31,770 nucleotides of DNA, taken from positions 1-31,770 of IMG/VR virus record IMGVR_UViG_3300030385_000040, one strand, 5' to 3'. The notes under the pieces were generated by a model. It did no database searches and had not been told where the DNA came from. It worked only from the letters and a program-made list of their open reading frames with translations. The first letter of the stretch is position 1. Every line of letters starts with the position of its first letter. Made by a program: the position numbers and the translations under genes. The DNA comes from a virus. Positions 1 through 31,770 of this stretch are shown here, one piece after another.

Positions 1-30
1 TTCAATCATGAAGGGTGGGACATTGATTAA
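1..30 (+). CDS. 3' fragment of the RHH-like gene that is complete at 31402-31701
   Basis: The first 30 bases read in frame as the last nine residues and TAA of the gene at the right edge. It is the same gene seen twice because of the circular overlap, not a separate or broken gene. Confidence 0.9.
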   Translation, partial: FNHEGWDID

Positions 31-44
31 AACATTTCTTTATT

Positions 45-79
45 TTGTGAAACATATTTGAATTTATTTATTAAGTTTG
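45..79 (+). promoter_or_regulatory. Candidate promoter of the terminase operon
   Basis: TAAGTTTG (72-79) fits the Bacteroidetes -7 consensus TAnnTTTG. The nearest suitable upstream TTG (45-47) is 24 bases away, longer than the usual 19-21 but equal to the spacing at 1781 and 20793. The ATG of the small terminase is 21 bases further on. Also present at 31716-31750. Confidence 0.5.
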
Positions 80-100
80 CCAAAACGAAAATGAAACAAA

Positions 101-502
101 ATGGCACACTCTAAAAAAAAGGAACAAAAGCGAACCGAAATCACAAAGGAACAATTATTAAAACAGTTGGAACAAAACATGGGAAATGTAACGTTGGCAT
201 GTCATTTTGGGAAATGTTCACGTTCGACGTTTTATCGTTATTACAAAAGCGACGAAGCGTTTGCAAAACAAGTGGACGACATTACGGAAATTGCAATTGA
301 CATTTGCGAATCCGAATTGTGGAAACAAATCAAAGACGGAAACGTTCCGTGCATTTTATTCTATTTAAAAACAAAAGGAAAAAAACGTGGTTATGTTGAA
401 CGTCAAGAATTAACCGGCATGGACGGCAAACCAATTAATTGGGTTGAAACAAAAACATATGCGGCCAATGGAATTGTCAATAAAGCAAACGACGGCAATT
501 GA
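101..502 (+). CDS. terS: Terminase small subunit
   Basis: A 133-residue protein that should recognise the packaging site on phage DNA and hand it to the large terminase. Residues about 15-60 form a helix-turn-helix of the kind found in small terminases (GNVTLACHFGKCSRSTFYRYY, where the second helix starts at SRSTFYR). It is followed by a helical stretch with ESELWKQIKDGN and FYLKTKGKKRGY, a block commonly seen in this family. It lies directly upstream of, and overlaps by 59 bases or fewer, a clear large terminase. Start chosen at the ATG after an A-rich leader. Function rests on the HTH plus position; DNA specificity cannot be read from sequence. Confidence 0.82.
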   Translation: MAHSKKKEQKRTEITKEQLLKQLEQNMGNVTLACHFGKCSRSTFYRYYKSDEAFAKQVDDITEIAIDICESELWKQIKDGNVPCILFYLKTKGKKRGYVERQELTGMDGKPINWVETKTYAANGIVNKANDGN

Positions 503-1775
503 TTATTTAGAAGACGCACACACCAACGTTGTTTTATTTGGCGGCGGTGCGGGTGGCGGCAAATCAATGTTGGGCGCATATTGGGTTTTGAAACAATGTT
601 TGAAATATCCGGAAACCCGTTATGTCATAGGACGTTCACGATTAAAGAATTTAAAAGAAACAACATTGCGTTCGTTATTCGAAGTTTGTCAAATGCAAGG
701 ATTGACGGCCAATGTAGATTTCACATATAACGAAACCAAATCGTTAATCACAATTCACGCGACACAATCCGAAATCATATTAAAGGATTTGTTTCACTAT
801 CCAAGCGACCCAAATTTTGATTCGTTGGGTTCAATGAATATCACCGGCGCGTTTATTGACGAAGCAACGGAAATCACACCAATGGCGTTCAATGTTATTC
901 AATCACGAATCCGTTACAAGTTAGACGAAAACAATCTATATCCAAAATTATTGTTAACATGCAATCCGTCGAAAGGTTGGATTTATTCGGAGTTTTACAA
1001 AAAGCATAGGGACGGGACAATGGACGAAAACAAAAAGTTTGTTCAATCATTAGTGACGGACAACCCGCATATTTCAAAACACTATATTAAACAATTGCAG
1101 CAATTGGACGTGTTGAATCAAAAACGTTTGTTGTTTGGCGATTGGGAATATTCGGACGAAGACACACAATTGTTTTCCATTGACGCGTTGAACGATATGT
1201 TCACAAACAATTTTGTTTCAAGCGTTGGCGCGAAATTTATTTCGGTTGACGTTGCGCGTTATGGCCGTGACATGTCCGTGATTTGTTTGTGGCATGGTTG
1301 GCGTGTTGAATCAATTAAAACATTGGACAAAAATTCCATTGACGAATTGGCAACGATTGTTGATAAGATAGCAAAAGACAACAACGTTCAACGTTCAAAC
1401 ATTGTCGCCGATTCGGACGGGGTTGGTGGCGGGTTCGTTGATATATTGAAGGGCTGCAAATCATTTGTCAATAATGCAAAGGCAATGGACAATGAGAATT
1501 TCCGAAACTTAAAAACGCAATGTTATTATAAGTTCGCGCAAAAAGTTATGAATGGACAAGTGTTTATTAATATCACCAACAAAGAATTGCAACAACAAAT
1601 AATTATGGAATTCGAAATGGTTAAACAACACGACGTTGATAAGGACAACAAATTAATGATTACACCAAAAGATAAAATCAAACAATTGTTGGGACGTTCA
1701 CCGGATATTGCCGACGCCTTAATCATGCGCTACTATTTTGAATTAAACAAAACGAAAATTTTATATTTCGGTTAA
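444..1775 (+). CDS. terL: Terminase large subunit (ATPase and nuclease)
   Basis: Packaging motor that pumps DNA into the prohead and cuts the concatemer. Numbered from the 444 start, Walker A is GGGAGGGKS at about 33-41 and Walker B is GAFIDEATEI with D139/E140. The C-terminal RNase H-like nuclease shows three acidic blocks: SVDVARYGRD, VADSDGVGGG and SPDIADALIM. Length of 443 residues is normal. The start is uncertain: ATGs at 444, 459 and 468 are all inside the end of terS, and 468 (MELSIKQTTAIDYL) puts the usual LxxKQ motif at the N-terminus. Overlap suggests translational coupling with terS. The copy is intact. Confidence 0.95.
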   Translation: MKQKHMRPMELSIKQTTAIDYLEDAHTNVVLFGGGAGGGKSMLGAYWVLKQCLKYPETRYVIGRSRLKNLKETTLRSLFEVCQMQGLTANVDFTYNETKSLITIHATQSEIILKDLFHYPSDPNFDSLGSMNITGAFIDEATEITPMAFNVIQSRIRYKLDENNLYPKLLLTCNPSKGWIYSEFYKKHRDGTMDENKKFVQSLVTDNPHISKHYIKQLQQLDVLNQKRLLFGDWEYSDEDTQLFSIDALNDMFTNNFVSSVGAKFISVDVARYGRDMSVICLWHGWRVESIKTLDKNSIDELATIVDKIAKDNNVQRSNIVADSDGVGGGFVDILKGCKSFVNNAKAMDNENFRNLKTQCYYKFAQKVMNGQVFINITNKELQQQIIMEFEMVKQHDVDKDNKLMITPKDKIKQLLGRSPDIADALIMRYYFELNKTKILYFG

Positions 1776-1780
1776 CTTAA

Positions 1781-1817
1781 AATTGCGACGCTTATATAAA
1801 AGAATTTTTTATTTTTG
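1781..1817 (+). promoter_or_regulatory. Candidate promoter with TTGCGACG box, tail operon
   Basis: AATTGCGACG at 1781-1790, exactly 19 bases, then TATTTTTG at 1810-1817. The same two blocks with the same 19-base gap occur at 20793-20829 before the amidase gene. It starts six bases after the terL stop and lies ten bases before the ATG at 1828, so the mRNA leader would be only a few bases long. Confidence 0.6.
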
Positions 1818-1827
1818 TAAATTCAAC

Positions 1828-2253
1828 ATGAATTTTAAAACGCTAAATAAAGAACACAAAGAAATTTTGGACGATTTTACAAACGACGTCGAAGGTTTCA
1901 TTTATAGAATTACGGACGACCAAAACCACAAAGCGTTCCGATATTTCAAACCCGTTATAACAAACGCAAAAACATTACACAACAACATTGGCAAAGAATT
2001 GAAACAAATGGACATTTTGGAATCGGATTGGATTTATATGTTTCCAAATTATTTGTTGTTTGCCGGAATTGGATTTGCGGCCGGAATAAAAAACAAAGAC
2101 AACGAACAATTCATTGAATATGAAACGGAACAATTGTTTGAATTAATACGCGAAACAATTAACGATTTGGAATTTATGAATGACAAACGCATTATGAAAA
2201 ACCAAGTGACGAACCAAAATAAAAAACCACAAACAAAAAAACAAAATGATTAA
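1828..2253 (+). CDS. Hypothetical protein, first gene of the tail operon
   Basis: A 141-residue protein, not recognised. It looks soluble and mainly helical, with one more hydrophobic stretch in the middle (MFPNYLLFAGIGFAAGI) and a very polar, Asn/Gln/Lys-rich tail. An in-frame ATG exists at 1783, but that would place the promoter inside the gene; the ATG at 1828 is preferred because TATTTTTG ends at 1817. The end overlaps the next gene by eight bases. Position at the head of the tail genes suggests a role in tail assembly. Confidence 0.7.
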   Translation: MNFKTLNKEHKEILDDFTNDVEGFIYRITDDQNHKAFRYFKPVITNAKTLHNNIGKELKQMDILESDWIYMFPNYLLFAGIGFAAGIKNKDNEQFIEYETEQLFELIRETINDLEFMNDKRIMKNQVTNQNKKPQTKKQND

Positions 2254-2953
2254 TTTAAAAGTCGGCGACCAACAATGCAAAATTCCGCAAGCGTGGAACG
2301 AAATCAATTTAAAAAATTACACAAAAATTTATGAAATAATAAATCAAAATATTTTTGTAGAACCAACGGAAGGCAACGAACCAACAACCGACGCGGACAT
2401 CAAGACATTAAACACGGAACGCGGGTTGCACAACATTCGAATTAATCGTCGCGTGTTTTCCGAATTTACGGGAATTGACAAACACACAATTAATCAAGTT
2501 GACGGAAACGAAATGTCCGAAACATTAATGTTAATGTCAAATTTTTTAAATTCAGAAATTAGCGCAAAAGCAATTGAACCGGAACAAAAGAAATCCTTTT
2601 CTTTAAAAGGAAAACAATATTTTTTTCCAATTGCTAAAATGAAAACGTCAACGTTCGGCGATTATATAGAAGCTTCGCAATTGGATTTGTTGGCGGAAAA
2701 AAACAAGGCCGGACGATTCGGAGTTATTGCCGAACAAATGGCGGTGTTGTGTCGTGAAAATGGTGAAAAATACGACGAACAATTAGTTGCAAAGAAAACA
2801 AAAATGTTTGGTGATTTAACAATGGACATTGTTTGGGAATTTCTTTTTTTTTTGACGAAACAAACGAACACGTTAAAAAAACATTCCCAAATGTATTCAA
2901 AGGCGGAAATCGAAACGACAACCGACACGCAACAAAACATTGGGACATTGTAA
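2246..2953 (+). CDS. Candidate tail assembly chaperone, short form (G-like)
   Basis: A 235-residue protein with no motif I can name. What makes it interesting is the run of ten T at 2844-2853 near its end, within frame codons CTT TTT TTT TTG. The -1 frame is open from 2815 to 3177, so slippage on the T run would swap the last 33 residues for a different 108-residue tail. A short product plus a -1 frameshifted long product, upstream of the tape measure gene, is the hallmark of lambda G/GT-type tail chaperones, which coat the tape measure during tail assembly. The assignment is by architecture and position, not by sequence similarity. Confidence 0.6.
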   Translation: MINLKVGDQQCKIPQAWNEINLKNYTKIYEIINQNIFVEPTEGNEPTTDADIKTLNTERGLHNIRINRRVFSEFTGIDKHTINQVDGNEMSETLMLMSNFLNSEISAKAIEPEQKKSFSLKGKQYFFPIAKMKTSTFGDYIEASQLDLLAEKNKAGRFGVIAEQMAVLCRENGEKYDEQLVAKKTKMFGDLTMDIVWEFLFFLTKQTNTLKKHSQMYSKAEIETTTDTQQNIGTL

Positions 2954-3177
2954 AACCATACGGTTGGTTAAATACATTGTATGACGTTGCGAAGGCGGGG
3001 TTGTTTACAACACAACCGTTGAACGCAATTGAATCAGTAAAGGCACAAAATATTTATACGGTGTTTACATATTTAAGTTGGAAGTCGGCGCAAAACGAAT
3101 ATGAAAACGAAGTTAAAAAAGCAATGCACGACGAAGCGGAACAAAAACAAAAAGCAAAAAGCAGAAAACGAAAATGA
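2815..3177 (+). CDS. -1 frame extension of the tail chaperone (T-like part)
   Basis: Open frame between a stop at 2812-2814 and TGA at 3175-3177. It has no good start of its own: the first possible one is a TTG at 2833, deep inside the 2246 gene. If ribosomes or polymerase slip by -1 on T10 (2844-2853) the product is about 310 residues: about 202 from the 2246 frame and 108 from this one. The extension contains GWLNTLYDVAKAG and ends in a Lys/Arg/Gln-rich tail. The alternative is one miscounted T in the assembly, which would make a single continuous gene of about the same size. Confidence 0.65.
   Translation, partial: FNNGHCLGISFFFDETNEHVKKTFPNVFKGGNRNDNRHATKHWDIVKPYGWLNTLYDVAKAGLFTTQPLNAIESVKAQNIYTVFTYLSWKSAQNEYENEVKKAMHDEAEQKQKAKSRKRK
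2844..2853 (+). promoter_or_regulatory. T10 slippery run, probable -1 frameshift site
   Basis: Ten T within zero-frame codons CTT TTT TTT TTG. It contains the heptamer T TTT TTT, in which both tRNAs can re-pair after a -1 slip. It lies in the window where both frames are open (2815-2953). I see no strong hairpin directly downstream. Confidence 0.6.
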
Positions 3178-3305
3178 TTATAATTGAATGGATAGGTTGG
3201 ACAATTGGCGTTTGTTCCGTTGTGGTGTTTGTGTTGGGAATAGCAATTGGAATATATGTTTCAAGTCAAATCAAAAAAGCAATTAACAAAAACATAAAAC
3301 AATGA
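3174..3305 (+). CDS. Small single-pass membrane protein
   Basis: A 43-residue frame that starts in an ATGA overlap with the previous stop and ends in another ATGA overlap with the next start, which argues that it is translated. Residues about 5-29 form one hydrophobic segment (WIGWTIGVCSVVVFVLGIAIGIYV) followed by a Lys/Asn-rich tail, so N-out/C-in topology is likely. The role is unknown; it is unusual to find a membrane protein among tail genes. Confidence 0.6.
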   Translation: MIIIEWIGWTIGVCSVVVFVLGIAIGIYVSSQIKKAINKNIKQ

Positions 3306-3799
3306 GTGCAAACGTAACAACAAATTTAATCGTTGACCGAATGAAATTTTATTGGGTTAATCAAACCGGCGGTGGTGGATTTTATTTTGGTTGGCCGCAA
3401 GAGGTTGACAACATACATTTAAAAACATTGCCGTTATTAGTTTTGAACCCGCCGGAAATTACTTTGTCGCCGAAGACATGGAACACAAACACAATTTTAA
3501 ACAATTCACATTGGACGTTTATTGCTTACGAAGTTTTGCCGACAGAATACAATGTCACGGACGATTTAATTATTTTGGAATTTTGGGACACATTAGAAGA
3601 CAAGGTTTTAAATTGGTTTTACAATTGGTGGTATTATTACGAAAACGTTTTGGGAATTGAATTTGTATTAACGTCACCAATTCAAATCACTAGAATTAAA
3701 GAAGCGTCCAACGATAGGTTGTTGGGTTTAAAAGTTACATTCGGATTTGACTTTTATAGATATTGCGCGACCATTTCCGATTTTCCAAACATTTCATAA
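3302..3799 (+). CDS. Probable tail-completion/terminator-type protein
   Basis: A 165-residue protein rich in aromatic residues (WNWWYYYENV region) and predicted to be alpha/beta. I do not recognise a motif. Between a chaperone-like pair and an HK97 gp10-like protein, and with this size, a tail terminator or head-tail joining role is the natural guess: such proteins cap the tail tube and join it to the head. The stop overlaps the next ATG by one base (TAATG). The function is inferred from place only. Confidence 0.6.
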   Translation: MSANVTTNLIVDRMKFYWVNQTGGGGFYFGWPQEVDNIHLKTLPLLVLNPPEITLSPKTWNTNTILNNSHWTFIAYEVLPTEYNVTDDLIILEFWDTLEDKVLNWFYNWWYYYENVLGIEFVLTSPIQITRIKEASNDRLLGLKVTFGFDFYRYCATISDFPNIS

Positions 3800-4329
3800 T
3801 GGACATGTCAAGAGTAAATACAATCGCGGTTCAAATTGAATCAATTTTAGGGCAACAATTAATTGCATTAAATCGAAGTGCGTCCGGCGCATTAATCAAT
3901 TCATTGCAACATGAAATAATTGGCAAAGGTGAATTTGGGTTGGATTTAAAAATTATGGCATGGAACTATTGGCGCGTTGTGGAATACGGCGTTCCGGCGG
4001 CCAACGTTCCGTTTGACGCACGGAAACGAAGTGGTGCGGCAAGTTCGGAATATATAAAAGGATTGATTAGTTGGGTTAAAACAAAGGGAATGGGGTCAAG
4101 TCAAGACGCGATTCGTTCAATCGCCTTTGCAATTGCAACAAAACAAACATCAACAAGTCGTGGCGGTTTTGGATTGGGAAATCCAATGAATAAAAATAAA
4201 TTGGGGTTTGTTAAAAAATCCGAATTATCAATAAACAATGAAATCAAAAAGATTTCAAAAATATATGAAAACGAAGTGTTGAAAATAATTGGACACGAAA
4301 TTCCAACCCAAATCGAAATTATAATTTAA
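3799..4329 (+). CDS. HK97 gp10-like tail/neck completion protein (probable)
   Basis: A 176-residue basic protein. A stretch at about 45-90 (WNYWRVVEYGVPAANVP followed by a basic segment and YIKGLISWVKTKGM) resembles the HK97 gp10 family, where a short VE(F/Y)G element precedes the end of the fold. Such proteins help finish the neck or tail. An in-frame ATG at 3763 exists, but the one at 3799 overlaps the previous stop as TAATG, which suits coupled translation. Confidence in the family is moderate. Confidence 0.6.
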   Translation: MDMSRVNTIAVQIESILGQQLIALNRSASGALINSLQHEIIGKGEFGLDLKIMAWNYWRVVEYGVPAANVPFDARKRSGAASSEYIKGLISWVKTKGMGSSQDAIRSIAFAIATKQTSTSRGGFGLGNPMNKNKLGFVKKSELSINNEIKKISKIYENEVLKIIGHEIPTQIEIII

Positions 4330-4339
4330 AAATAAAGAC

Positions 4340-5791
4340 ATGGCATTTACAGTTTTTGCGCAACCTTATACACTCAAAATGTGTTCAACAATTGTTCCGT
4401 TAGTTTGGCAAGTATGGGAAGACACGGCGGACACAACTAACATTATTGCTGAAGGGTGGTGGATTGATTCTACGTCGGGAACACCCGTTCACGCCCAAGT
4501 TGGCGGCCAATATAGAATGGCACCAAAATTAAACGTTCAATATCAATGGCGATTTGACGGTTCGGAATTATTTAACACGCTAACAAAATTCACATTGGAC
4601 GACGCACCAAACAATTGGAAATTGGGGTCAATTGACGGAATTATGAATTCAAATGAAATTTGGGAAAACGTTATGTCTTACGCAATTTATTGCAAATTTT
4701 ATCGTGAGTATTTAGACGCGGCGGACGGATTAATTAAAATTGACCCAACGCCATTAACCGCTTTCACAACAATGTGTTGTGAAGGTAGTCCCGAAAAGGA
4801 TTGGTTGGTTTCAATGGTTGATTCGAATGGATATTTGGCGGGAGAATCCATTTTTGAATTTTTCGACGCTGACTATCTAACGGGCGCGTTGGGAACGGGT
4901 AAACGTTATTATACAAACTATCCAATAAAAGTCCCGACGGCCGGTTTGTTGACGGGACAACCAACGTCCTACGTTACAATCCACGAATCCGAACAATATA
5001 TGTTGACGTTCCGTGCGAAAAAAACGGTGAATGGTGGTGATTTAACTAGCACCTACCGTTGGACAATTTCAACCTATGACGAAGCCGGTGTTGCATTGGG
5101 AACACATGTCGATTACATAGAAGAAGACACCAACCTTCAAACAATATCGGTTGGATTTCGCGATATTGTCGATAACTTAACACCAAACGGAACGGAGGCG
5201 GCGGGGTTCACGAACGTTGCTAGTTACTCATTTATTTTTGAAAGTTGTTCGTTAGTCGGAACGCCTTGCACGAATTGGGTGCAAGGATTGACAAATTATT
5301 CTTTTAAAGTTTCGCGGAAATGTATTACGAACGGCGGTTATTTACGATTTGCGTTTAAAAACATGGCGGGTGGTTTTGACATGGTAACAAGTGACGGAAA
5401 ATTCACACACAAAACAAAAAACAAATTCGAAGATTTCGAACAATCATTAGGTTATGAGGATTGGAACAACCCAATGGATTTTGGAAATTCAAATTGGGCA
5501 AATCAAAATGTCGAACGATACACCGTGACAACGGAATTAAAGAAAAAAGAAAACGCGATTCATTTTACGGAAATGCTATCGTCAACACAAGTTTATTTGC
5601 GCGTTCCAAATGAAAGTTATAAAAAAACCATTTACGACGATTCCGAGCTTGCCGCGTCCAAACAACCGTATTTTTTCATGCCAATTGTAATAAAAGGCGG
5701 AAACACCAACATTGAATTGTCGCAAGACAATTACGCGTCCATTAAATTTTCATTTGAAATGGCCGTCAACCAACGAAATCCAAGATATTAA
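4340..5791 (+). CDS. Large virion tail protein
   Basis: A 483-residue, Trp/Tyr-rich and beta-rich protein. The central part (about 220-330) alternates short strands like an Ig-like or carbohydrate-binding fold, and about 345-375 carries RFAFKNMAGGFDMVTSDGKF, a pattern I associate with tail proteins of Bacteroidetes phages. It stands directly before the 1185-residue tail protein and the tape measure. It could be a major tail or distal-tail protein; sequence alone does not decide. Confidence 0.6.
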   Translation: MAFTVFAQPYTLKMCSTIVPLVWQVWEDTADTTNIIAEGWWIDSTSGTPVHAQVGGQYRMAPKLNVQYQWRFDGSELFNTLTKFTLDDAPNNWKLGSIDGIMNSNEIWENVMSYAIYCKFYREYLDAADGLIKIDPTPLTAFTTMCCEGSPEKDWLVSMVDSNGYLAGESIFEFFDADYLTGALGTGKRYYTNYPIKVPTAGLLTGQPTSYVTIHESEQYMLTFRAKKTVNGGDLTSTYRWTISTYDEAGVALGTHVDYIEEDTNLQTISVGFRDIVDNLTPNGTEAAGFTNVASYSFIFESCSLVGTPCTNWVQGLTNYSFKVSRKCITNGGYLRFAFKNMAGGFDMVTSDGKFTHKTKNKFEDFEQSLGYEDWNNPMDFGNSNWANQNVERYTVTTELKKKENAIHFTEMLSSTQVYLRVPNESYKKTIYDDSELAASKQPYFFMPIVIKGGNTNIELSQDNYASIKFSFEMAVNQRNPRY

Positions 5792-15942: not shown

Positions 15943-16920
15943 ATGGCAAATGTAGCATTGGACAATATAAGCGCAACGTATTCGGGCGCAAATTTTAGCG
16001 AATTGTTTTTAGAACCAATCTTTAGAGATTCGGATTTAATGCAATTTAGAGTTATTCCAAACGTAAAATATAAAATGAATCTTTATACGGCGGACGCATT
16101 ATCATGTATTGTTCAAAAATACACAACATGTGGTGGTGACGAAAGTGGCGATTTTAATGTTAACGACAAAGTAATTACGGCGGGACGTATGCGTGTTGCG
16201 GTTTCACAATGTCAAGACGCATTTTTTGGAACGTATTTAGAAGAAAGTTTCAAAAATGGAATCAATGTATTTAATTTAGAAGGCACGGCATTAATGGACA
16301 CAATTTTGGCAAACGTTAGACAAGGAATTGCGAGTGACATTGTAAAAATCGCATGGTGGGGTGACACGGCGGAAGCGGGCGCAAGTGCGGCATGTTACGA
16401 TTCAACCGACGGTTGGTGGAAACTATTAAAAGCGGACGCAACGGTTGACGGAAACAAAGTAACAATTGCGAACGGCGTATTAACGGCGGCGGCATGTTTA
16501 ACGGCATTGCGTGCAATGTGGGCAGCAGCACCAAGCGCGTTGCAAGGAGTTGACGCAAGAGAAAAAGCAATTTATTGCACACGTTCAATTTATGAAGGTT
16601 ATTTGGAATCAATCGAAGACTTAGGAAACGCGGAAGGTTATTCAACGCTAGTTGACGGTCTTGTAAAAGTTTATTTCCGTGGCGTTGAGGTAATTCCAAT
16701 GTATGGTTGGGACACGGCAATTTCACAACGAGCAATCGCGGACGACAATTGCGCATGTTATACGGCGAAACAAAATATGGCGGTTGGAACGGACACGAAC
16801 GACCCCGAAGGTGAATTAAAAATGTTTTACGACGATTTGACGGAAAAAGTTTATGTTCGTGCATATTTCAAATTGGGCGTTCAGTTTTTACACGATTCAA
16901 TGGTTCAAATAGGATATTAA
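15943..16920 (+). CDS. Major capsid protein
   Basis: A 325-residue protein following the protease/scaffold gene, as usual for HK97-fold capsid genes, with a long A-rich leader suited to strong translation. N-terminal FSELFLEPIFRDSDLMQFRVIPNVKYK resembles the N-arm and start of the shell domain in capsid proteins of Bacteroidetes phages; the C-terminal part ends VRAYFKLGVQFLHDSMVQIGY, a typical beta-hairpin ending. It has an unusual number of cysteines for a capsid protein (several between 90 and 270). I see no obvious cleavage site. Assigned from position, size and general pattern. Confidence 0.82.
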   Translation: MANVALDNISATYSGANFSELFLEPIFRDSDLMQFRVIPNVKYKMNLYTADALSCIVQKYTTCGGDESGDFNVNDKVITAGRMRVAVSQCQDAFFGTYLEESFKNGINVFNLEGTALMDTILANVRQGIASDIVKIAWWGDTAEAGASAACYDSTDGWWKLLKADATVDGNKVTIANGVLTAAACLTALRAMWAAAPSALQGVDAREKAIYCTRSIYEGYLESIEDLGNAEGYSTLVDGLVKVYFRGVEVIPMYGWDTAISQRAIADDNCACYTAKQNMAVGTDTNDPEGELKMFYDDLTEKVYVRAYFKLGVQFLHDSMVQIGY

Positions 16921-17675: not shown

Positions 17676-17876
17676 ATGGCAAATTATAAGTTACACAAAG
17701 ACGTTGCGGGTTCGAAATCATTTCGACACAACGGAACAAAATATTCAACACATTTGGTCAACCAAAAGATATTGAAAAAATTATATAATGACGGATTCGA
17801 ATATGTTTCGGAATCCAAGGAATCCAAAAAACCCGCAAAAAATGAGCAAAAAGAAGACAACAACGGCAACGATTAA
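17676..17876 (+). CDS. Hypothetical small protein before the portal gene
   Basis: A 66-residue basic protein with a charged, disordered C-terminus (KESKKPAKNEQKEDNNGND). Not recognised. Its end overlaps the portal start by 35 bases, so translation of the two is probably coupled. Could be a small head factor. Confidence 0.7.
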   Translation: MANYKLHKDVAGSKSFRHNGTKYSTHLVNQKILKKLYNDGFEYVSESKESKKPAKNEQKEDNNGND

Positions 17877-19077
17877 AGCGGTTGCACAAAAAGTTGGATT
17901 TACGAAGTTTGATATTTTTAATGTTGGCGTCAATGAAAAGGTGCGCGAAAATGTAGATTTAAAAAACTTAAAAACACCTTTTATTCCTTTTGGCGAAGAC
18001 AATTTATTTCCGCAATTTTTGGCCGAAATCGCAAGACAATCACCAACGCACCGTTCAATCCTAGGTCAAAAGAAAATTTTATCTATTGGCAAGGAATTTC
18101 ATTCAGAAAATCCAAACGTCCAAAATTTTATTGACGACGTAAACACCGGCGAATCAATGCGTGAAGTTTACGGCCGAATTATTGACGATTATTATTCGTT
18201 TGGGAATTCTTATATGCAAATTGTCCAACATAAAACCGGAATAAATTTATTTCATATTGACGCGACGAAATGTCGAGTTTCAAAAGACGAAAAATATATT
18301 TATATTCACCCAAATTGGGCAAAGTATGGAACAACAAAAGAAGACACGGTTATAATTCCCGTTTATCCAAATTTTGAAAAAAACACGTCAATTGTTCAAT
18401 TTAAAGATTACGAACCGACATTTAATTATTACGGTTTACCGGATTTTGTGGCCGCAATGTCATGGTTGGCGATAGATTGGGAATTGCAAACTTATAATGA
18501 ATCCAAGTTCAAAAATAATTTTACACCTAGCGCAATCGTTGAAATCAACGGTGACATGGGCGAAGAAGAAGCCGAAAAATTAGTAAAAGAAGCGCAACAA
18601 AAATGGACGGGCAAAGGCAATAATTCCAAAATTTTGTTTTTGGTTAAAAATGGCGACACATCACCGGCAAATGTTACGATTTTAAACGACGGTTCGGACG
18701 GTTCGTTTATGGAATTACAAAAATTGACGTCCCAAAACATAATCACCGCGCACCGTTGGCAACCGGCAATGTCGGGAATTGTTAGTTCGGGAAAATTAAG
18801 TTCAACCGGAAATGAAATTCGCGTTGCATGGGAAATGGTTATGGGAACAATCATTAAAGACGTCGAAGGGTTGATTTTTGGGAAAATTAAAAAAATAATA
18901 AAAGACAACACGTCGTTGGACATTGACGATTTCGAAATTATTTACGAACCGCCGGTTTCGTTTTTATCGGACATTGTTCCGGCAGCCGTTTTAACAATAA
19001 ACGAACAACGTTTGGTGTTAGGTTTCGAAGCGACGGAATTTGGCGACATAATGTTGTCCACAAAAAAAGAAATATAA
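17842..19077 (+). CDS. Portal protein
   Basis: A 411-residue protein that should form the 12-fold ring through which DNA enters and leaves the head. It has the layout of HK97/PBSX-type portals: FIPFGEDNLFPQFLAEIARQSPTHRSI near the N-terminus, SFGNSYMQIV and LFHIDATKCRV in the wing, YYGLPDF and FKNNFTPSAIVEING in the middle, then the stem helices. The ATG at 17842 is preferred over one at 17788 because of the A-rich leader and the lysine-rich N-terminus typical of these proteins. It sits after the capsid gene and far from terL, which is unusual. Confidence 0.88.
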   Translation: MSKKKTTTATIKAVAQKVGFTKFDIFNVGVNEKVRENVDLKNLKTPFIPFGEDNLFPQFLAEIARQSPTHRSILGQKKILSIGKEFHSENPNVQNFIDDVNTGESMREVYGRIIDDYYSFGNSYMQIVQHKTGINLFHIDATKCRVSKDEKYIYIHPNWAKYGTTKEDTVIIPVYPNFEKNTSIVQFKDYEPTFNYYGLPDFVAAMSWLAIDWELQTYNESKFKNNFTPSAIVEINGDMGEEEAEKLVKEAQQKWTGKGNNSKILFLVKNGDTSPANVTILNDGSDGSFMELQKLTSQNIITAHRWQPAMSGIVSSGKLSSTGNEIRVAWEMVMGTIIKDVEGLIFGKIKKIIKDNTSLDIDDFEIIYEPPVSFLSDIVPAAVLTINEQRLVLGFEATEFGDIMLSTKKEI

Positions 19078-22030: not shown

Positions 22031-23275
22031 TTGCGGCAAAAACACAAACAATTTAGGCCGCATTGGACAACGGAATTGCAATCGTTGATTTTACAATTAC
22101 GAAAATTTCCAAAACATATCCAAAAACATTGTTTGGATTTGGCGGTTCGTTCGGCAAATAGTGGAAACGAAATCATTTTTGACGAAAACAAAAAGGGCGC
22201 GACAATTGAAACGCCGCGTTCGTCAAGGATTCGAACAATCGACGATTTAATTAATCATTGTGAAATTGATTTGGACGTTTGGGAAATTGAACGTTATGTT
22301 GTGAACAAATGGGAAGTTGGGTCAAGTGTCGAAGGGACAATTATTGTTGAACCTTTGTTTCAAATAAAGGCGTGGTTAAAAAAGCACACGGACATTTTAA
22401 ACATTAAAAAATTACGCGACGAATTAATTAATGAAGTTCAAACATTTGCGCCGAAATATCCAAAATTTAATTATAAAAAAATTGACAACGGACATTTGTT
22501 GGAAATTAACATTTTTGATTTGCATTTTGGCAAATTGTGTTGGGGGTTGGAAACCGGCGACAATTACGACACAAAGATTGCCGCCAAACGGTTTTTAAGT
22601 GCCATTGACGCCATTATAAAACGTTCAAAGGGTTATGACATCAAACGGATTGTTTTTCCCGTTGGCAACGATTTTTTTAATTCGGACACAAGATTGAACC
22701 AAACAAGCGCGGGAACACCACAAGACGAAGACGTCCGTTGGCAAAAAACATTCAAGGCGGGACGGGAATTATTAATCGGCGGAATTGATTTATTATCTAA
22801 GGTTGCGCCCGTTGACGTTGTTATTGTCCAAGGGAATCACGATTGGGAACGTTCGTTTTATGTTGGTGACGTGTTGTCGTGTTGGTATCACAACAACCCA
22901 AACGTTGACGTTAACAACGAACCAACACCACGGAAACATTATAAGTTCGGAAATTGTTTAATCAGTTACACACACGGAAACAATGAAAAAATTATTGATT
23001 TGCCTTTATTAGTAGCGTCAGAAGTTCCAAAATTATGGGCGTCAACGCAATTTCGCGAAATTCATATTGGACATTTGCACCATAAAAAGGAAATTAAATT
23101 CATGGCAACGCAAGAACACAAAGGAATGGTTATTCGTTTCATGCGTTCACTAAGCGGAACGGACGCATGGCACAATTTCAAAGGTTATAAGGGCGCAATT
23201 CAAGCGTGCGAAGCGTTCGTTTGGGACGAAAACGAGGGTTTAATATGCCAATTTTCACATAATTTGATTAAATAA
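22031..23275 (+). CDS. Calcineurin-like metallophosphoesterase with N-terminal HTH region
   Basis: A 414-residue protein. Residues about 158-350 hold the metal-binding blocks of the family: DLHFGK (D163, H165), GNDFFNSD (212-219), GNHDWE (269-273), YTHG and GHLHHKK. Such enzymes cleave phosphodiesters using two metal ions. The first 100 residues are different and include RTIDDLINHCEIDLDVW...NKW, a helix-turn-helix-like block, suggesting DNA binding. There is no ATG in the first 300 residues; the start is TTG at 22031, two bases after the spanin stop. Probably a DNA nuclease or repair enzyme, but substrate unknown. Confidence 0.85.
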   Translation: MRQKHKQFRPHWTTELQSLILQLRKFPKHIQKHCLDLAVRSANSGNEIIFDENKKGATIETPRSSRIRTIDDLINHCEIDLDVWEIERYVVNKWEVGSSVEGTIIVEPLFQIKAWLKKHTDILNIKKLRDELINEVQTFAPKYPKFNYKKIDNGHLLEINIFDLHFGKLCWGLETGDNYDTKIAAKRFLSAIDAIIKRSKGYDIKRIVFPVGNDFFNSDTRLNQTSAGTPQDEDVRWQKTFKAGRELLIGGIDLLSKVAPVDVVIVQGNHDWERSFYVGDVLSCWYHNNPNVDVNNEPTPRKHYKFGNCLISYTHGNNEKIIDLPLLVASEVPKLWASTQFREIHIGHLHHKKEIKFMATQEHKGMVIRFMRSLSGTDAWHNFKGYKGAIQACEAFVWDENEGLICQFSHNLIK

Positions 23276-27285: not shown

Positions 27286-27306
27286 TTTAAACATTTCGTA
27301 TATTTA
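27275..27306 (+). promoter_or_regulatory. Weak candidate promoter of the replication genes
   Basis: TATATTTA at 27299-27306 resembles the -7 box, as at 28882. The -33 side is poor: TTC at 21 bases or TTTTG at 14 bases. ATG 27336 is 29 bases downstream with an A-rich leader. Confidence 0.4.
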
Positions 27307-27335
27307 CAAACTAAATAAAACCAAAAAAAACCATT

Positions 27336-28037
27336 ATGAAAAAACAACAAGTCAAAGAAACCCGCCAATTTTTAGGAATTTGGATTCCGCGTGAAATTTA
27401 TTTGAACCAAAAATTAAATTGGACGGACAAAATTTTGGTTGTGGAAATCAATTCATTAGACAACGAACGCGGGTGTTTTGCGTCCAATGAATATTTCGCC
27501 GAATTTTTATCAGTTTCAACAACAACCATTTCAACATCAATTTCAAAATTAAAAAGTTTGAATTTAATTGAACAAGTTTCTTTTGACGGCCGGACGCGAA
27601 TTTTAAAGGCAGCGTTTAAACAAATAAAAAACCCGCCTTTAAATAAAGTTAAAGGCAGCCGCAAAGAAAATTTAAAACATAATAAAACAAACAATAAAAC
27701 AATTAACATATCTAATATTGAAATCCGAAAATTAAAATTTATAAATGACATTTCTTTAATAAACAAAAACAAAGAAACATCAAAACAATTCGAATCATAT
27801 TGGACGGAAGAAAATTCAAACAAAACCAAAATGCGTTTTGAAATGGAAAAAATTTTTGATATTAAAAAACGTTTTGCGCGTTGGGAATCAAACGAATTAA
27901 AATGGAATAAAAAAACAACCGAAGGCAAATCATATTATTTAAAGAAAAAAGGGGTGAACAAAACCAAACAAAACATTAACACATGGCAAGACGCGCGCAC
28001 CATGTTGGACAATCTAAATTTGCCAAATGGAAATTAA
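27336..28037 (+). CDS. Replication initiator-like protein with winged helix
   Basis: A 233-residue basic protein. Residues about 12-95 (FLGIWIPREIYLNQKLNWTDKILVVEI, CFASNEYFAEFLSVSTTTISTSISKLKSLNLIE) form the HTH/winged helix seen at the N-terminus of phage replication initiators. About 150-190 (FESYWTEENSNKTKMRFEMEKIFDIKKRFARW) is a C-terminal block often found in such proteins in phages of Bacteroidetes. It would bind the origin and load host replication enzymes. A transcription factor is the alternative. Confidence 0.7.
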   Translation: MKKQQVKETRQFLGIWIPREIYLNQKLNWTDKILVVEINSLDNERGCFASNEYFAEFLSVSTTTISTSISKLKSLNLIEQVSFDGRTRILKAAFKQIKNPPLNKVKGSRKENLKHNKTNNKTINISNIEIRKLKFINDISLINKNKETSKQFESYWTEENSNKTKMRFEMEKIFDIKKRFARWESNELKWNKKTTEGKSYYLKKKGVNKTKQNINTWQDARTMLDNLNLPNGN

Positions 28038-28419
28038 AAACATTGACATTAAAAGGTTGCGCGAACAATGTGTTGATTTAATGTCGCAATCATACATGGA
28101 ATTGGGACAACGACCAAGCAAAGACGACATTGTTTCGTTTGCATTAATTTTGGCAACCGATTTAAAAATTGATTTTCCAAATTTAACGTTCGACGATATA
28201 CGTCAAAGTTTCCGGCAAGGAATTCGCGGTGGTGAAATTTTCCATTTGAACGTGCAAAATTATTACAAATGGATTAAAGCACACCGACAAATTATTTGGA
28301 ACAACGAATCAATTGAACCACAACAACGGGACAAACGGTTGAATTATAGAAACAAAAAAGGAGTTGGAACAAAATCAATAGGCGAACACATTAAAAAAAT
28401 TAGTTATGGCACAAAATGA
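28027..28419 (+). CDS. Hypothetical replication-associated protein
   Basis: A 130-residue helical protein overlapping the initiator-like gene by 11 bases and the nuclease gene by 14. Contains FDDIRQSFRQGIRGGEIFHLNVQNYYKWIKAHRQII. Size and neighbours suggest a helicase-loading or initiator accessory factor, but no motif (for example Walker A) is present. Confidence 0.65.
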   Translation: MEIKNIDIKRLREQCVDLMSQSYMELGQRPSKDDIVSFALILATDLKIDFPNLTFDDIRQSFRQGIRGGEIFHLNVQNYYKWIKAHRQIIWNNESIEPQQRDKRLNYRNKKGVGTKSIGEHIKKISYGTK

Positions 28420-28759
28420 ATTGAAGGTTCAAATTGCCGTGGTTAATTGGTTGCGAATAAATTTTCCGGAAATTCTTTATTGTGCGTCGGCGGGCGGCAT
28501 GCGAACGTCGTTGTCCGTTGCAAAGAAAATGAAGGCGTCCGGATATGTTAAAGGCATGCCGGATTTGGGAATTTTTCACCCAACAATGAAACACCATGGA
28601 ATGTTTGTCGAATTAAAAGCCGATAAAAAAGGATATGCGTCAAAGGAACAAAAGGAATGGATTGAAATGTTGAATCGTCGCGGTTATTATGCGGTTGTTT
28701 GCAAGGGTTTTGACGCTGCAATCGACGAAATAACGGAGTATTTGAACGAAAATGTTTGA
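28406..28759 (+). CDS. VRR-NUC domain nuclease
   Basis: A 117-residue protein of the PD-(D/E)XK superfamily. GMPDLGIF (D53), FVELKADKKG (E69, K71), SKEQKEW (Q82) and the end GYYAVVCKGFDAAIDEI are the ordered motifs of stand-alone VRR-NUC proteins of phages. Such enzymes are thought to process branched DNA such as Holliday junctions or flaps; it may resolve replication intermediates before packaging. Confidence 0.88.
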   Translation: MAQNELKVQIAVVNWLRINFPEILYCASAGGMRTSLSVAKKMKASGYVKGMPDLGIFHPTMKHHGMFVELKADKKGYASKEQKEWIEMLNRRGYYAVVCKGFDAAIDEITEYLNENV

Positions 28760-28781
28760 AAAAATGGGTGTTTTTTGTAGA

Positions 28782-28796
28782 AAATGAAAGTTTTTT
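28782..28796 (+). repeat. 15-mer AAATGAAAGTTTTTT, copy 2
   Basis: Exact copy of 23296-23310, in the 134-base gap after the nuclease gene, 49 bases before copy 3. Confidence 0.6.
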
Positions 28797-28845
28797 TTAA
28801 ACGTAACGTGTTGATAATCAAAGACAAACAAAACAATGTTAAAAT

Positions 28846-28860
28846 AAATGAAAGTTTTTT
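28846..28860 (+). repeat. 15-mer AAATGAAAGTTTTTT, copy 3
   Basis: Exact third copy. Its last two T with the next G form the -33 TTG of the promoter at 28859, so a protein bound here would touch the promoter directly. Confidence 0.65.
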
Positions 28861-28889
28861 GTATTATATGCAAAAAACTTGTATATTTA
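28859..28889 (+). promoter_or_regulatory. Early promoter, leaderless type
   Basis: TTG at 28859-28861, 20 bases, TATATTTA at 28882-28889. The ATG at 28894 is four bases further, so the mRNA should begin at or next to the start codon. Confidence 0.65.
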
Positions 28890-28893
28890 CGCC

Positions 28894-29199
28894 ATGAAAA
28901 CAACAACAAAAAACAAAAGAATCCAATTAACATTCAGTATTCACGGCGATTGGTTGTTCGGCGATTCAAAATGGGCGGTGGTTTGCAATGAAACAACAAT
29001 GTTAATTGGTTGTTCAACACGCAAAGAATGTCGCGATTTGAAAAACGATTGGACACAATGGGAATTTGTAGACCAAACAAGATTGCCGAAAGGACAAACA
29101 ATTGAATTTTACGACAACAAGGGGTTAACGGAAACAATTGATTACGGCGAAAACACCGGACAAGATTGGCAGCCGACAACATACGAATTTTTAAAATAA
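28894..29199 (+). CDS. Hypothetical early protein
   Basis: A 101-residue, Trp-rich, mainly beta protein (FSIHGDWLFGDSKWAVVCNETT, NDWTQWEFVDQTRL). Not recognised. The start at 28894 is chosen because an upstream in-frame ATG (28879) overlaps the promoter. First gene of the last early operon. Confidence 0.7.
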   Translation: MKTTTKNKRIQLTFSIHGDWLFGDSKWAVVCNETTMLIGCSTRKECRDLKNDWTQWEFVDQTRLPKGQTIEFYDNKGLTETIDYGENTGQDWQPTTYEFLK

Positions 29200-29221
29200 A
29201 CCAAACCAAAAAAAACTAATT

Positions 29222-29530
29222 ATGTATATCAGTAAAAAACCAAACCAAAAAATCAAAGCAATTTTATTAATGGAATTTCGCGTTTACGGAAGCGAAAGAA
29301 ATATCGGACGTCACTATTGTTTGTATGAAGACACCGAAAACAAAGATTTAATTTGTTGGACAAAATACAAATCCGAAATGTTGGAATATATAAAAGACAA
29401 CAACATTAGTATTTCGAAATCGTCAAGCCTTACGAAATACGACGATTATATTGATTGGAAAAAACACGAACATAAATGTGAGGGTTATTATCAATTCAAG
29501 TTTCAAGTTCAGAAAAAAACAAAATCATAA
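29222..29530 (+). CDS. Hypothetical early protein
   Basis: A 102-residue protein with a basic N-terminus and many Tyr/Lys/Asp; no motif recognised. Its leader (CC, eight A, CTAATTATG) is identical to that of the 24153 gene. Stop and next start overlap as TAATG. Confidence 0.68.
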   Translation: MYISKKPNQKIKAILLMEFRVYGSERNIGRHYCLYEDTENKDLICWTKYKSEMLEYIKDNNISISKSSSLTKYDDYIDWKKHEHKCEGYYQFKFQVQKKTKS

Positions 29531-29976
29531 TGTCAGAATTCAAACAACAATTAAAAGACAACGACGGTTCACATGAAATTGAAGTTGATTCGTTAACAAT
29601 AGACAACGAAACGTGTTCCCTTTATTACTTTAAAGACGCGGACGCAATCCAAATAATCTTTTGGGACGAACACCACGGCGACGAACAAAAATTCATTACA
29701 ACGCACAAATTTGGTTCGTTCAAAGAATATGCAGAAAACAACGATTATTTAATAGTATCAACGGAACAATGGGACGCACAAACGGAATCAGTTTTTCAAA
29801 AATACGATTCAATAGAATTTGACGAATGGATTTATGAAGACAAAGCCGAAGATTGTTTGGTTGATTTTATGAATGATTCATTATTAATTCACGGGACGCA
29901 ATATGTTAAACGTAGTTTGTGCGATAGGGTTTCACGTTGGGTCAATTTAAAAATGTATAATTTAAAGAATTTATAA
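29530..29976 (+). CDS. Hypothetical acidic early protein
   Basis: A 148-residue protein with about twice as many Asp/Glu as Lys/Arg (DEHHGDE, EFDEWIYEDKAEDCLVDFMND). Not recognised. Strong negative charge in a small early phage protein raises the possibility of DNA mimicry, but no ArdA or Ocr signature is evident. Confidence 0.7.
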   Translation: MSEFKQQLKDNDGSHEIEVDSLTIDNETCSLYYFKDADAIQIIFWDEHHGDEQKFITTHKFGSFKEYAENNDYLIVSTEQWDAQTESVFQKYDSIEFDEWIYEDKAEDCLVDFMNDSLLIHGTQYVKRSLCDRVSRWVNLKMYNLKNL

Positions 29977-29977
29977 A

Positions 29978-30379
29978 ATGGAATTCACAACACACACAAG
30001 CGAACACAAGGAAATTGATTTTGATTTAACGGGGTTTGAAACATTTTTAAAAACAAACAAGGGGTTGAAAATTTATGAAATTGATTTAATAACAAACGCG
30101 GCAATAATTGATTGGCAATTTTATTTTGAAGCACGGTCATGGGGGGTCAAAGACGTTGGCGCATTTGCAACCCACGTTAAATGGTTGGACATTAATGTTG
30201 AGTATTGGAAAACAAAACAAGATTATGAAGACGGAAACGAAAATGAAATCAATTATGATTTAACCAACGACATTCAGGATTTCAAAGTTAATTCCGAAAA
30301 CGATTCGGGCGGAAAAATGTTTTCGATTCAACGGGTTGAAATTGATTTTGAAGACAAAACAATTACAATAATTTTTTAA
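29978..30379 (+). CDS. Second hypothetical acidic early protein
   Basis: A 133-residue acidic protein directly after the previous one (one base gap). Aromatic and Asp/Glu-rich (WKTKQDYEDGNENEINYD). Not recognised; net charge strongly negative as in its neighbour. Confidence 0.7.
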   Translation: MEFTTHTSEHKEIDFDLTGFETFLKTNKGLKIYEIDLITNAAIIDWQFYFEARSWGVKDVGAFATHVKWLDINVEYWKTKQDYEDGNENEINYDLTNDIQDFKVNSENDSGGKMFSIQRVEIDFEDKTITIIF

Positions 30380-30381
30380 AA

Positions 30382-30750
30382 ATGGAAATAATAAATTCAG
30401 AATTTAGAAAAAACGTTTTATCACTTTGTTGTGAAAAAAAGGTTTATTTAGGAACGCAAGATTGTTCCGGTTGTTTGAAACAATGCGCATTTGTAATTGA
30501 AAAACAAATTGCATTTCATAAATGGTTGTTTGAACAAAGCAAAGGACAAAGCAAGCCCGTTGAATTTTTAACCGAATTATTACGCACGCTATTAATTGAA
30601 GACCAAAACGCGTCGGCGTTTCAATTGTTAGACATGACGGATATTGGCGAACAACATTTCAATCGCGAATCATTAGGCCGTGCGGCGCAAATGATATACG
30701 ATACAAACTGTAAACTTTTTTTTACAAAAAAAAATAATAAATTAAACTAA
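30382..30750 (+). CDS. Hypothetical protein with Cys cluster
   Basis: A 122-residue protein with LCCEKK and then CSGCLKQC in the first 40 residues, a possible metal site, followed by a helical region (KPVEFLTELLRTLLIEDQNA). Not recognised. Two bases after the previous stop. Confidence 0.7.
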   Translation: MEIINSEFRKNVLSLCCEKKVYLGTQDCSGCLKQCAFVIEKQIAFHKWLFEQSKGQSKPVEFLTELLRTLLIEDQNASAFQLLDMTDIGEQHFNRESLGRAAQMIYDTNCKLFFTKKNNKLN

Positions 30751-30763
30751 AATCAAAATCAAA

Positions 30764-31228
30764 ATGGGAAAAATTAAAGCATTAGGAAAATCCGGAGAAG
30801 AACAAAAACGATTAAAGCGGTTGCACAACGAAAAGGAAGCATGGTATAAAAAAAACATACCTTTAAACGCACGCGACCAAATGTTAAAAATTTGCAATAC
30901 GATTTGGACGTCAAGGCAACCGGAACAAATAAAGGGTTGTGAAAAAATGTTAACAACGTATATCAAAGCAAATGGCAAAGACAATATTGGCGTCACGTTT
31001 ATTCAATTGGAATTGTCGCGACAAATAAGATTGAACGCGTTGTTTGCTAAAATGGGACAAGTCCAAACCGCATTGCAAAAAGAAAATGCAGCAAAGGCGG
31101 CGACACAAAGTAAAGTGAAATTTGACAAACCATTAACAACGGACGAATTAAAAGCGGCAAACATAAAACGGGTTGAAAGTGAACAAACGAAAATCATGAA
31201 TAAAAAGATTAAACCGAATGGACAATAA
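30764..31228 (+). CDS. Hypothetical basic helical protein
   Basis: A 154-residue Lys-rich protein, nearly all helix, with a long Ala/Gln/Lys stretch at about 90-115. Could bind nucleic acid. It ends the early operon; about 173 bases without a convincing gene follow. Confidence 0.68.
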   Translation: MGKIKALGKSGEEQKRLKRLHNEKEAWYKKNIPLNARDQMLKICNTIWTSRQPEQIKGCEKMLTTYIKANGKDNIGVTFIQLELSRQIRLNALFAKMGQVQTALQKENAAKAATQSKVKFDKPLTTDELKAANIKRVESEQTKIMNKKIKPNGQ

Positions 31229-31255
31229 CAGCGTCAACGGGCGTGATTCCCTATG

Positions 31256-31291
31256 TTGCGATGTTATATTGGAAAAACAAACGTATTTTTA
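31256..31291 (+). promoter_or_regulatory. Weak candidate promoter, TTGCGATG variant
   Basis: TTGCGATG at 31256-31263, 20 bases, TATTTTTA at 31284-31291. Close to the TTGCGACG-N19-TATTTTTG pair at 1781 and 20793 but with three differences. It would drive the gene at 31402 and terminase. Confidence 0.4.
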
Positions 31292-31326
31292 CAATTCTTT
31301 AATTGGCGTTCGTTTTGTTTGTTTTC

Positions 31327-31345
31327 CCGAACGTCGGTTTTTTTT
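31327..31345 (+). terminator. Weak terminator candidate
   Basis: Short stem CCGA/TCGG (31327-31330 with 31334-31337), three-base loop, then eight T. The T run is good but the stem is only four pairs. Confidence 0.35.
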
Positions 31346-31350
31346 GGTTG

Positions 31351-31375
31351 AAGGGGTGGCGTGGTTGCCGCCCTT
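31351..31375 (+). terminator. Terminator-like hairpin at the end of the early region
   Basis: AAGGG (31351-31355) pairs with CCCTT (31371-31375); inner GGC/GCC stem across a GT/G bulge; six-base loop. A T-rich but broken tail follows. The plan (5-bp outer stem, 2/1 bulge, 3-bp inner stem) matches the hairpin at 24099. Confidence 0.55.
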
Positions 31376-31401
31376 TCTATTTTCTATTAAACACAAACAC
31401 A

Positions 31402-31701
31402 ATGGCAAACGAATTTGACAAATATAAATCAAAAGACGATTTCAAAAAATACGAATCGTTAAATGATTATTTAGCAGAAGACAAAACAAAGGATTTCACA
31501 AAAGAAAAATTTGACAAAGTTATTACATTAAAAGTCACAAAAGAAACCTTTGACATGTGGGAACAATTATGCGACAATTGGGGTGACGTGTTAGGATATG
31601 ACAACAAGTCAAAGATATTTGAATTCGCAATCGTCGAAGCATTGAACGTTCCGATTAGTTCGTTGGGCGGATTCAATCATGAAGGGTGGGACATTGATTA
31701 A
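31402..31701 (+). CDS. Ribbon-helix-helix-like protein upstream of terminase
   Basis: A 99-residue protein. The C-terminal half KVITLKVTKETFDMWEQLCDNW...SKIFEFAIVEALN has the strand-helix-helix layout of RHH/CopG-type DNA-binding proteins; the N-terminal 40 residues are charged and helical. It may regulate late genes or help in DNA packaging, being the last gene before terS around the circle. ATG 31402 is preferred to the 31303 frame start, whose N-terminus (Phe/Gly/Pro/Trp-rich) falls across hairpins. Confidence 0.72.
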   Translation: MANEFDKYKSKDDFKKYESLNDYLAEDKTKDFTKEKFDKVITLKVTKETFDMWEQLCDNWGDVLGYDNKSKIFEFAIVEALNVPISSLGGFNHEGWDID

Positions 31702-31770
31702 AACATTTCTTTATTTTGTGAAACATATTTGAATTTATTTATTAAGTTTGCCAAAACGAAAATGAAACAA
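31672..31770. repeat. Right copy of 99-bp terminal direct repeat
   Basis: Exact copy of bases 1-99; removing one copy gives a unique circle of 31,671 bases. It contains the 3' end of the 31402 gene and the promoter region of the terminase operon. Confidence 0.95.

What the first reader, a model, noticed from the sequence alone, without database searches (positions are those of the whole stretch)
1..31770. No GATC site anywhere in the genome
I read every GAT in the window by eye and found it followed by T, A or (rarely) G, never C. By base composition about a hundred GATC would be expected in 31.7 kb (my rough estimate). The loss is not only a codon effect: Gly-Ser pairs use GGT/GGG before TCN instead of GGA, and Ile ATC is common after A but absent after G. 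No methyltransferase gene is visible. This suggests long exposure to hosts with GATC-cutting (DpnII/MboI-like) restriction, solved by site removal.
Basis: partly seen in the sequence, partly recalled or inferred. Interest (0 to 1): 0.82.

Follow-up and report, generated by a model that had tools for sequence, protein, structure and literature searches.

The report
Marine phages purging different restriction sites
This marine bacterial virus has removed every copy of the DNA word GATC, and its close relatives have each removed a different set of such words, most of them targets of bacterial DNA-cutting enzymes, so each genome looks like a record of the defences its lineage has met.

Summary
In detail: GATC occurs 0 times in 31,770 bases, against 40.5 expected (second-order Markov) and 55 ± 7 under synonymous codon shuffling, in all three codon phases. 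But it is one item of a larger pattern. The window also lacks GTAC and GGNCC and almost lacks GGNNCC, CCNGG, CCAG and GGGAT. About 40 relatives in this uncultured marine Bacteroidota-phage clade erase other words (CATG, CCGG, GGCC, TCGA, CTAG, GCGC, TTTAAA, AATATT, GAAGA, GCNGC, GACC), up to 11 per contig; chromosomal (prophage) relatives erase almost none. The sets turn over quickly: a relative with 81% DNA identity has plentiful GATC, and none of its 82 aligned GATC sites survives in the window (54% expected). That relative lacks GACC instead. Because Asp-His, Asp-Gln and Asp-Pro must be written GATC or GACC, no phage can purge both. Best explanation: changing sets of host restriction enzymes, answered by site removal. 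This is a known strategy in unusually extreme, fast-turnover form; the host is unknown. Separately, where GATC is only thinned, the remaining sites are unusually evenly spaced: GATC-specific, partly replicated, unexplained.

The parts
1..31770 (.). Whole phage contig: the stretch in which GATC is absent on both strands; also GTAC 0, GGNCC 0, GGNNCC 1, CCNGG 1, CCAG/CTGG 1, GGGAT/ATCCC 1
1..99 (.). 99-nt direct terminal overlap, copy 1
31672..31770 (.). 99-nt direct terminal overlap, copy 2
101..502 (+). terminase small subunit (PHROG 4044)
462..1775 (+). terminase large subunit (Pfam Terminase_3/Terminase_6N); used to find relatives, 58-93% identity
14824..15906 (+). ClpP-type protease (probably the prohead protease); in relative G019 a C5 methyltransferase gene lies just upstream
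15943..16920 (+). putative major capsid protein (inferred from its position after the ClpP protease; no Pfam hit); used for the tree
17788..19077 (+). conserved 429-aa structural-region protein (78-92% in the clade); function not tested
22052..23275 (+). DNA repair exonuclease-like protein (PHROG 704)
27336..28037 (+). replication initiation protein-like (PHROG 2880, HTH_36)
28406..28759 (+). VRR-NUC domain nuclease

Best explanation
The window is a phage of marine Bacteroidota whose genome has been purged by selection of the recognition words of several restriction enzymes in its recent hosts, GATC among them. Unmodified phage DNA carrying such a word is cut on entry, so variants without it are favoured until none is left. 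The clade meets different enzyme sets over time. When a pressure is lifted the word returns by mutation, and when a new one starts it is purged by point changes, so close relatives carry different complete 'taboo' lists. Shown here: the erasure, its frame independence, the bias to palindromes, the different sets in relatives, and the site-by-site replacement. Inferred: that host restriction enzymes are the cause, and the identity of the host and its enzymes.
For: GATC 0 vs 40.5 (Markov) and 55.3 +/- 6.6 (codon shuffle). Erased tetramers (obs/exp <= 0.05) in the clade: 59 of 365 palindromic genome-word pairs vs 23 of 3232 non-palindromic; in Bacteroidota chromosomal relatives 4 of 417 vs 0 of 3230. 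The erased palindromic words are, from general knowledge, Type II recognition sites; degenerate or asymmetric known specificities also come out (GGNCC, GGNNCC, CCNGG, GCNGC, GAAGA, GGATG; GAATC and GACTC, part of GANTC, in L041). Obs/exp for GATC, CCGG and CATG is strongly split between about 0 and about 1 in the clade. Aligned sites: 0 of 82 GATC of G002 kept in the window and 0 of 62 GACC of the window kept in G002, while an average tetramer is kept 54% of the time. GATC restriction-modification genes occur in Flavobacteriaceae: DpnII Pfam in 8 of 397 genomes; a Sau3AI-like REase (E 2e-74 to the Sau3AI structure) beside a C5-methyltransferase-like ORF. A sea-ice metagenome study lists GATC and GGCC among the commonest restriction-modification specificities and a Polaribacter MAG with CCWGG, CCGG and GGCC (PMC12570018).
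Against: No host is known, so no erased word has been matched with an enzyme in a real host. DpnII-type genes are found in only 2% of sampled Flavobacteriaceae. Several erased words (GACC, CCAG, CAGG, CCCG, ACCGT) are asymmetric and do not correspond to a restriction enzyme I know; the published survey finds avoidance mainly for orthodox Type II sites (PMC6286503). In some genomes GATC is thinned and evenly spaced rather than erased, which simple site purging does not predict.
Confidence: 0.8

Rival explanations
1. Avoidance of GATC to escape (or because of damage from) Dam/MutH methyl-directed mismatch repair, as discussed for phage phiX174.
For: phiX174 is GATC-free and adding GATC lowers its mutation rate (PMC5014478). 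Evenly spaced GATC in some relatives, with few long gaps, would fit a repair system that needs a GATC nearby.
Against: Many other words are erased in the same way. MutH-family proteins in Flavobacteriaceae are rare (9 of 249 genomes); eight of the nine best hits lie in 465-481-aa ORFs and the one checked against solved structures is Sau3AI-like. GATC is abundant in close relatives.
Confidence: 0.05
2. A mutational process (for example deamination of methylated C, or a biased repair system) removes GATC without selection.
For: T/C differences (GATC vs GACC/GGTC) are the commonest difference between G002 and the window, 26 of 74 sites.
Against: C-to-T loss (GATC to GATT) accounts for only 10 of 74 sites vs G002. 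The same GATC/GACC choice is resolved in opposite directions in different relatives. Mutation bias would not reach exactly zero for up to 11 words, a different set in each relative.
Confidence: 0.04
3. Codon or oligonucleotide usage bias of the phage or its host explains the zero.
For: The genome has strong codon bias (CAG 10 of 396 Gln, CTN rare) and low CAG, CTC and GTA trimers, which lowers some other words.
Against: With codon usage held fixed, 55 GATC are expected and 0 seen, in all three phases; CATG, TGCA and ACGT match the shuffle. Close relatives have GATC at or above expectation.
Confidence: 0.03
4. GATC is avoided because of another host function that reads GATC: a phosphorothioate (Dnd/Ssp) system, a modification-dependent (Type IV) nuclease, or a regulatory methylase.
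For: Asymmetric erased 4-mers (GACC, CCAG) and the evenly spaced residual GATC are not typical of orthodox Type II enzymes.
Against: The palindrome bias and the match to Type II specificities across the clade. No direct evidence for any such system was found; not tested.
Confidence: 0.08

Closest known systems
Recognition-site avoidance by phages (Rusinov et al. 2018, PMC6286503)
   Same: Elimination of Type II recognition words in dsDNA phages (compositional bias < 0.1); complete or nearly complete elimination was reported for about one tenth of viral genomes.
   Different: Here up to 11 words are erased in one contig, the set differs among relatives of one clade, and the loss is followed site by site between relatives. 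In the parts of that paper I read, the unit is the genome-site pair and turnover within one clade is not treated.
phiX174 GATC absence (PMC5014478)
   Same: A phage genome without a single GATC.
   Different: 5.4 kb ssDNA coliphage, discussed as mismatch-repair avoidance; here 31.8 kb with several other words erased and GATC-rich relatives.
Taboo-free sequence theory (PMC7560954)
   Same: Phage evolution under sets of forbidden words; four well-chosen taboos can disconnect the allowed space.
   Different: Theoretical. This clade gives natural examples, including a coding-level conflict (GATC vs GACC) forced by the genetic code.
Flavobacterium phage 11b and Cellulophaga phage phi10:1 (nearest isolates)
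   Same: Terminase 46% and 44% identical; Bacteroidota hosts.
   Different: No capsid match in the phage collection, so only distant relatives. Word erasure in them was not examined.

Membership tests
Restriction-site avoidance (eliminated site, PMC6286503 criteria) | Observed/expected below 0.1 with more than 15 expected | tested here: met
   GATC 0 of 40.5 (Markov) and 0 of 55 (codon shuffle); my expectation differs from the Burge method used in the paper
Restriction-site avoidance | The word is the recognition site of an orthodox Type II enzyme | tested here: met
   GATC enzyme genes of DpnII and Sau3AI type found in Flavobacteriaceae; specificity itself from general knowledge
Restriction-site avoidance | A host of the phage encodes that enzyme | not testable with these tools
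   host unknown; nearest chromosomal relatives are Bacteroidota prophages with 42-51% terminase identity
Restriction-site avoidance | Preference for palindromic words over other words of the same length | tested here: met
   59/365 vs 23/3232 in the clade, 4/417 vs 0/3230 in chromosomal loci
Restriction-site avoidance | Non-temperate phage (stronger elimination) | not tested
   no integrase noticed in the ORF list, but no systematic search; chromosomal relatives show almost no erasure
Self-protection by phage methyltransferase (alternative) | A DNA methyltransferase gene in the phage | tested here: not met
   no N6/N4 or C5 methyltransferase family hit in the window; D12 searched in relatives only; one relative, G019, has a full C5 methyltransferase
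Dam/MutH mismatch-repair avoidance (phiX174 type) | Host has MutH-dependent mismatch repair | tested here: inconclusive
   host unknown; MutH-family hits in 9 of 249 Flavobacteriaceae, eight in 465-481-aa ORFs; the one checked is Sau3AI-like

The most novel reading that the evidence does not exclude
In relatives where GATC is thinned but not erased, the remaining sites are placed at regular distances of about 1-2 kb, with too few close pairs and too few long gaps, while individual sites turn over (G008/G009 share only 5 of 12 and 11 aligned sites; L192/L173 share 1). This would mean that some host system reads the distance between GATC sites, for example a two-site, DNA-looping GATC endonuclease of Sau3AI type that tolerates isolated sites, or a system that needs a GATC every couple of kilobases. 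Genome-wide site spacing would then be a new anti-restriction strategy beside full erasure, readable from sequence.
Probability: 0.3. Interest if true: 0.82.

Novelty: new variant of a known kind. Interest (0 to 1): 0.62.

Why it matters
If host restriction is the cause, each uncultured phage genome in this clade carries a readable list of enzymes its lineage recently met, which could help to find hosts and to date shifts in host range. The clade shows that complete purging of many words can be gained and lost within the span in which orthologous proteins stay about 80% identical. It also shows a hard limit: because Asp-His, Asp-Gln and Asp-Pro must be spelled with GATC or GACC, a bacterium with enzymes against both words cannot be evaded by site removal alone unless the phage gives up these dipeptides. 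Such code-level conflicts suggest testable combinations of restriction specificities that phages cannot escape this way.

Tried and rejected
Codon bias as the whole explanation: rejected by synonymous shuffling. Phage methyltransferase: N6/N4 and C5 family searches gave nothing in the window; D12 gave only weak hits, in two distant relatives. An exact match of the phage among public isolates: none by DNA (first 25 kb only); terminase at 46% or less, capsid none. Host by chromosomal relatives: only distant Bacteroidota prophages, which hardly erase words. DpnII genes in seven genomes with related prophages: none. Recombination as the source of residual GATC sites: positions are spread, not clustered. 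AGTC never shared between G002 and G011 (0 of 30 and 0 of 29 sites): no longer motif found by looking at contexts; left open. CpG avoidance is suspected in L055/L062 (Pro before G always CCA) but was not tested; the window is not CpG-poor in these words.

Full report
Observation. GATC occurs 0 times in the window. The expectation is 102.7 by base composition, 64.2 by first-order and 40.5 by second-order Markov models. Shuffling synonymous codons among 47 predicted genes, with protein sequences and overall codon usage kept, gives 55.3 ± 6.6, spread over the three codon phases (18.1, 17.5, 19.6), against 0 observed in each. The first and last 99 bases are identical, so the contig is probably a whole genome.

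Not only GATC. In the window GTAC is 0 of 16, GGNCC 0 of 32, GGNNCC 1 of 27, CCNGG 1 of 27, RGCGCY 0 of 10, CCAG/CTGG 1 of 15, GGGAT/ATCCC 1 of 22 (Markov). GATG/CATC is 24 of 113. Codon-shuffle expectations agree for GTAC (43), GGNCC (18), GGNNCC (29), CCNGG (14) and CCAG (75). CATG, TGCA and ACGT are at their expected numbers.

What it is. The genome has terminase small and large subunits, a ClpP-type protease, an exonuclease, a replication initiator and a VRR-NUC nuclease. Relatives in IMG/VR share these genes. The nearest isolates are Bacteroidota phages: 11b at 46% terminase identity and Cellulophaga phi10:1 at 44%. A scan of bacterial genomes brings in Bacteroidota prophage regions.

Relatives. 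Six scans with the terminase and the putative capsid protein gave about 40 clade members and many more distant ones. Each member has its own erased list. G002: GACC 0/94, GTAC 0/16, with GATC 90/60. G003: GACC 0/77, CCGG 0/72, CATG 0/70, GGCC 0/36, ACCGT 0/36, GTAC 0/32, TTTAAA 0/28, with GATC 200/111. G010: CATG 0/77, TCGA 0/54, GAAGA 0/32, AATATT 0/23. G050 (locus L050): 11 words. Of 24 chromosomal control loci of at least 12 kb, two show one erased word each and the rest none. Palindromic tetramers are erased in 59 of 365 genome-word pairs, others in 23 of 3232; in the chromosomal loci 4 of 417 and 0 of 3230. On a capsid tree of 39 rows GATC changes state at least 6 times, and other words 3 to 6 times. 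Support in parts of that tree is low, and some rows are near-identical contigs.

Tempo and site fates. L043 and the window are 85.5% identical over 11.3 kb, G002 and the window 81.0% over 23.8 kb. Of 82 aligned GATC sites in G002 none is kept in the window, and of 62 GACC sites in the window none is kept in G002. The mean tetramer is kept 54% of the time, and these two words are the lowest of all. G008 and G009, 89.9% identical over the aligned 15.7 kb, differ in ACCGT (0/19 vs 47/66). In codon alignments 26 of 74 GATC sites of G002 are GACC or GGTC in the window. Pairs of contigs above 94% identity did not differ in any tested word.

A limit set by the genetic code. Asp-His, Asp-Gln and Asp-Pro can only be written GATC or GACC. 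Genomes that erased GATC use GAC there without exception (window 35 of 35), and genomes that erased GACC use GAT (G002 45 of 45, G003 55 of 55). Of the genomes tested, 55 had erased GATC, 6 GACC, none both. With these numbers the absence of double erasure is not significant by itself; the constraint is logical. Similarly Pro before a G-codon is CCC in 41 of 41 cases in G003 and CCA in 56 of 56 in L055; the latter may reflect CpG avoidance.

Mechanism. Selection by host restriction fits best: palindromes preferred, recognised Type II specificities recovered from an unprompted word scan, strong on/off distribution, all codon phases, no N6/N4 or C5 methyltransferase in the window, and GATC restriction-modification genes in a plausible host family (DpnII type in 8 of 397 Flavobacteriaceae; Sau3AI type with a neighbouring C5-methyltransferase-like ORF). 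An independent study reports GATC and GGCC among the commonest restriction-modification specificities in sea ice, and CCGG, CCWGG and GGCC in a Polaribacter MAG (PMC12570018). The causal step is inferred: the host is unknown. Asymmetric erased words such as GACC and CCAG have no enzyme I can name.

Evenly spaced GATC. While checking genomes with intermediate GATC counts I saw that the remaining sites are evenly spaced. Among 3560 word-genome tests the four most regular were all GATC, two of them from the related G008 and G009. For genomes with obs/exp below 0.6 the combined test gives 133.8 on 50 df, with no such signal for ten other palindromes (includes related genomes). I then fetched new loci as a further test: 9 independent clusters, combined P = 0.009 for GATC, none for the controls. 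Over all 23 clusters P = 8e-7. The pattern survives a null that draws from near-GATC positions. Both close pairs and long gaps are too rare. Individual sites turn over between relatives while spacing stays even. The idea arose from the same data, the replication is small and rests largely on one locus (L255), and I have no mechanism I trust. A two-site enzyme of the Sau3AI type is one candidate; that Sau3AI needs two sites is from my own knowledge, and a paper search did not settle it.

Position relative to the literature. Site elimination is known; the survey of about 4000 viruses reports complete or near-complete elimination in about a tenth of genomes (PMC6286503). What appears new here is the number of words per genome, their turnover among relatives seen site by site, the code-level GATC/GACC conflict, and possibly the spacing. 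I searched the literature only in an open-access library, so 'new' is provisional.

Noticed in passing
G009 (loci L030+L031), G008 (L038), G012 (L034+L035), L173, L192, L154, L255: GATC sites that remain are evenly spaced (for example G009: 19 sites, gaps 590-2848, P about 1e-4); specific to GATC among the palindromes tested.
   Followed up: partly
L041: 1541, 5331, 6814, 9065, 11312 (partial copy at 2763): All six GATC of this contig lie in GGATCCGG; five are full CCGGATCCGG palindromes 1.5-3.8 kb apart, in genes and between genes, and they hold most of the contig's CCGG. Not found in any other held locus.
   Followed up: partly
G002 (L002+L025) vs G011 (L015+L033), word AGTC: About 30 aligned AGTC sites in each genome, none shared (0 of 30 and 0 of 29) although the mean tetramer is shared 45% of the time; no longer motif explained it.
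   Followed up: partly
L232 (contig of L053, G019): 1447-2499: A complete C5 methyltransferase gene (nearest solved structures 8yf3 and M.HaeIII) directly upstream of the ClpP protease gene, in a relative that erased CTAG (0 of 87).
   Followed up: no
clade-wide; for example L055, L062, L063, L070, L150: Asymmetric words (GACC, CCAG, CAGG, CCCG, ACCGT) are also fully or almost fully erased in some genomes; I know no restriction enzyme for them.
   Followed up: partly
window and relatives, GATG/CATC: GATG is strongly reduced (24 of 113 in the window) and the remaining copies are mostly TGATG followed by T or A; several longer words seem to be avoided.
   Followed up: no
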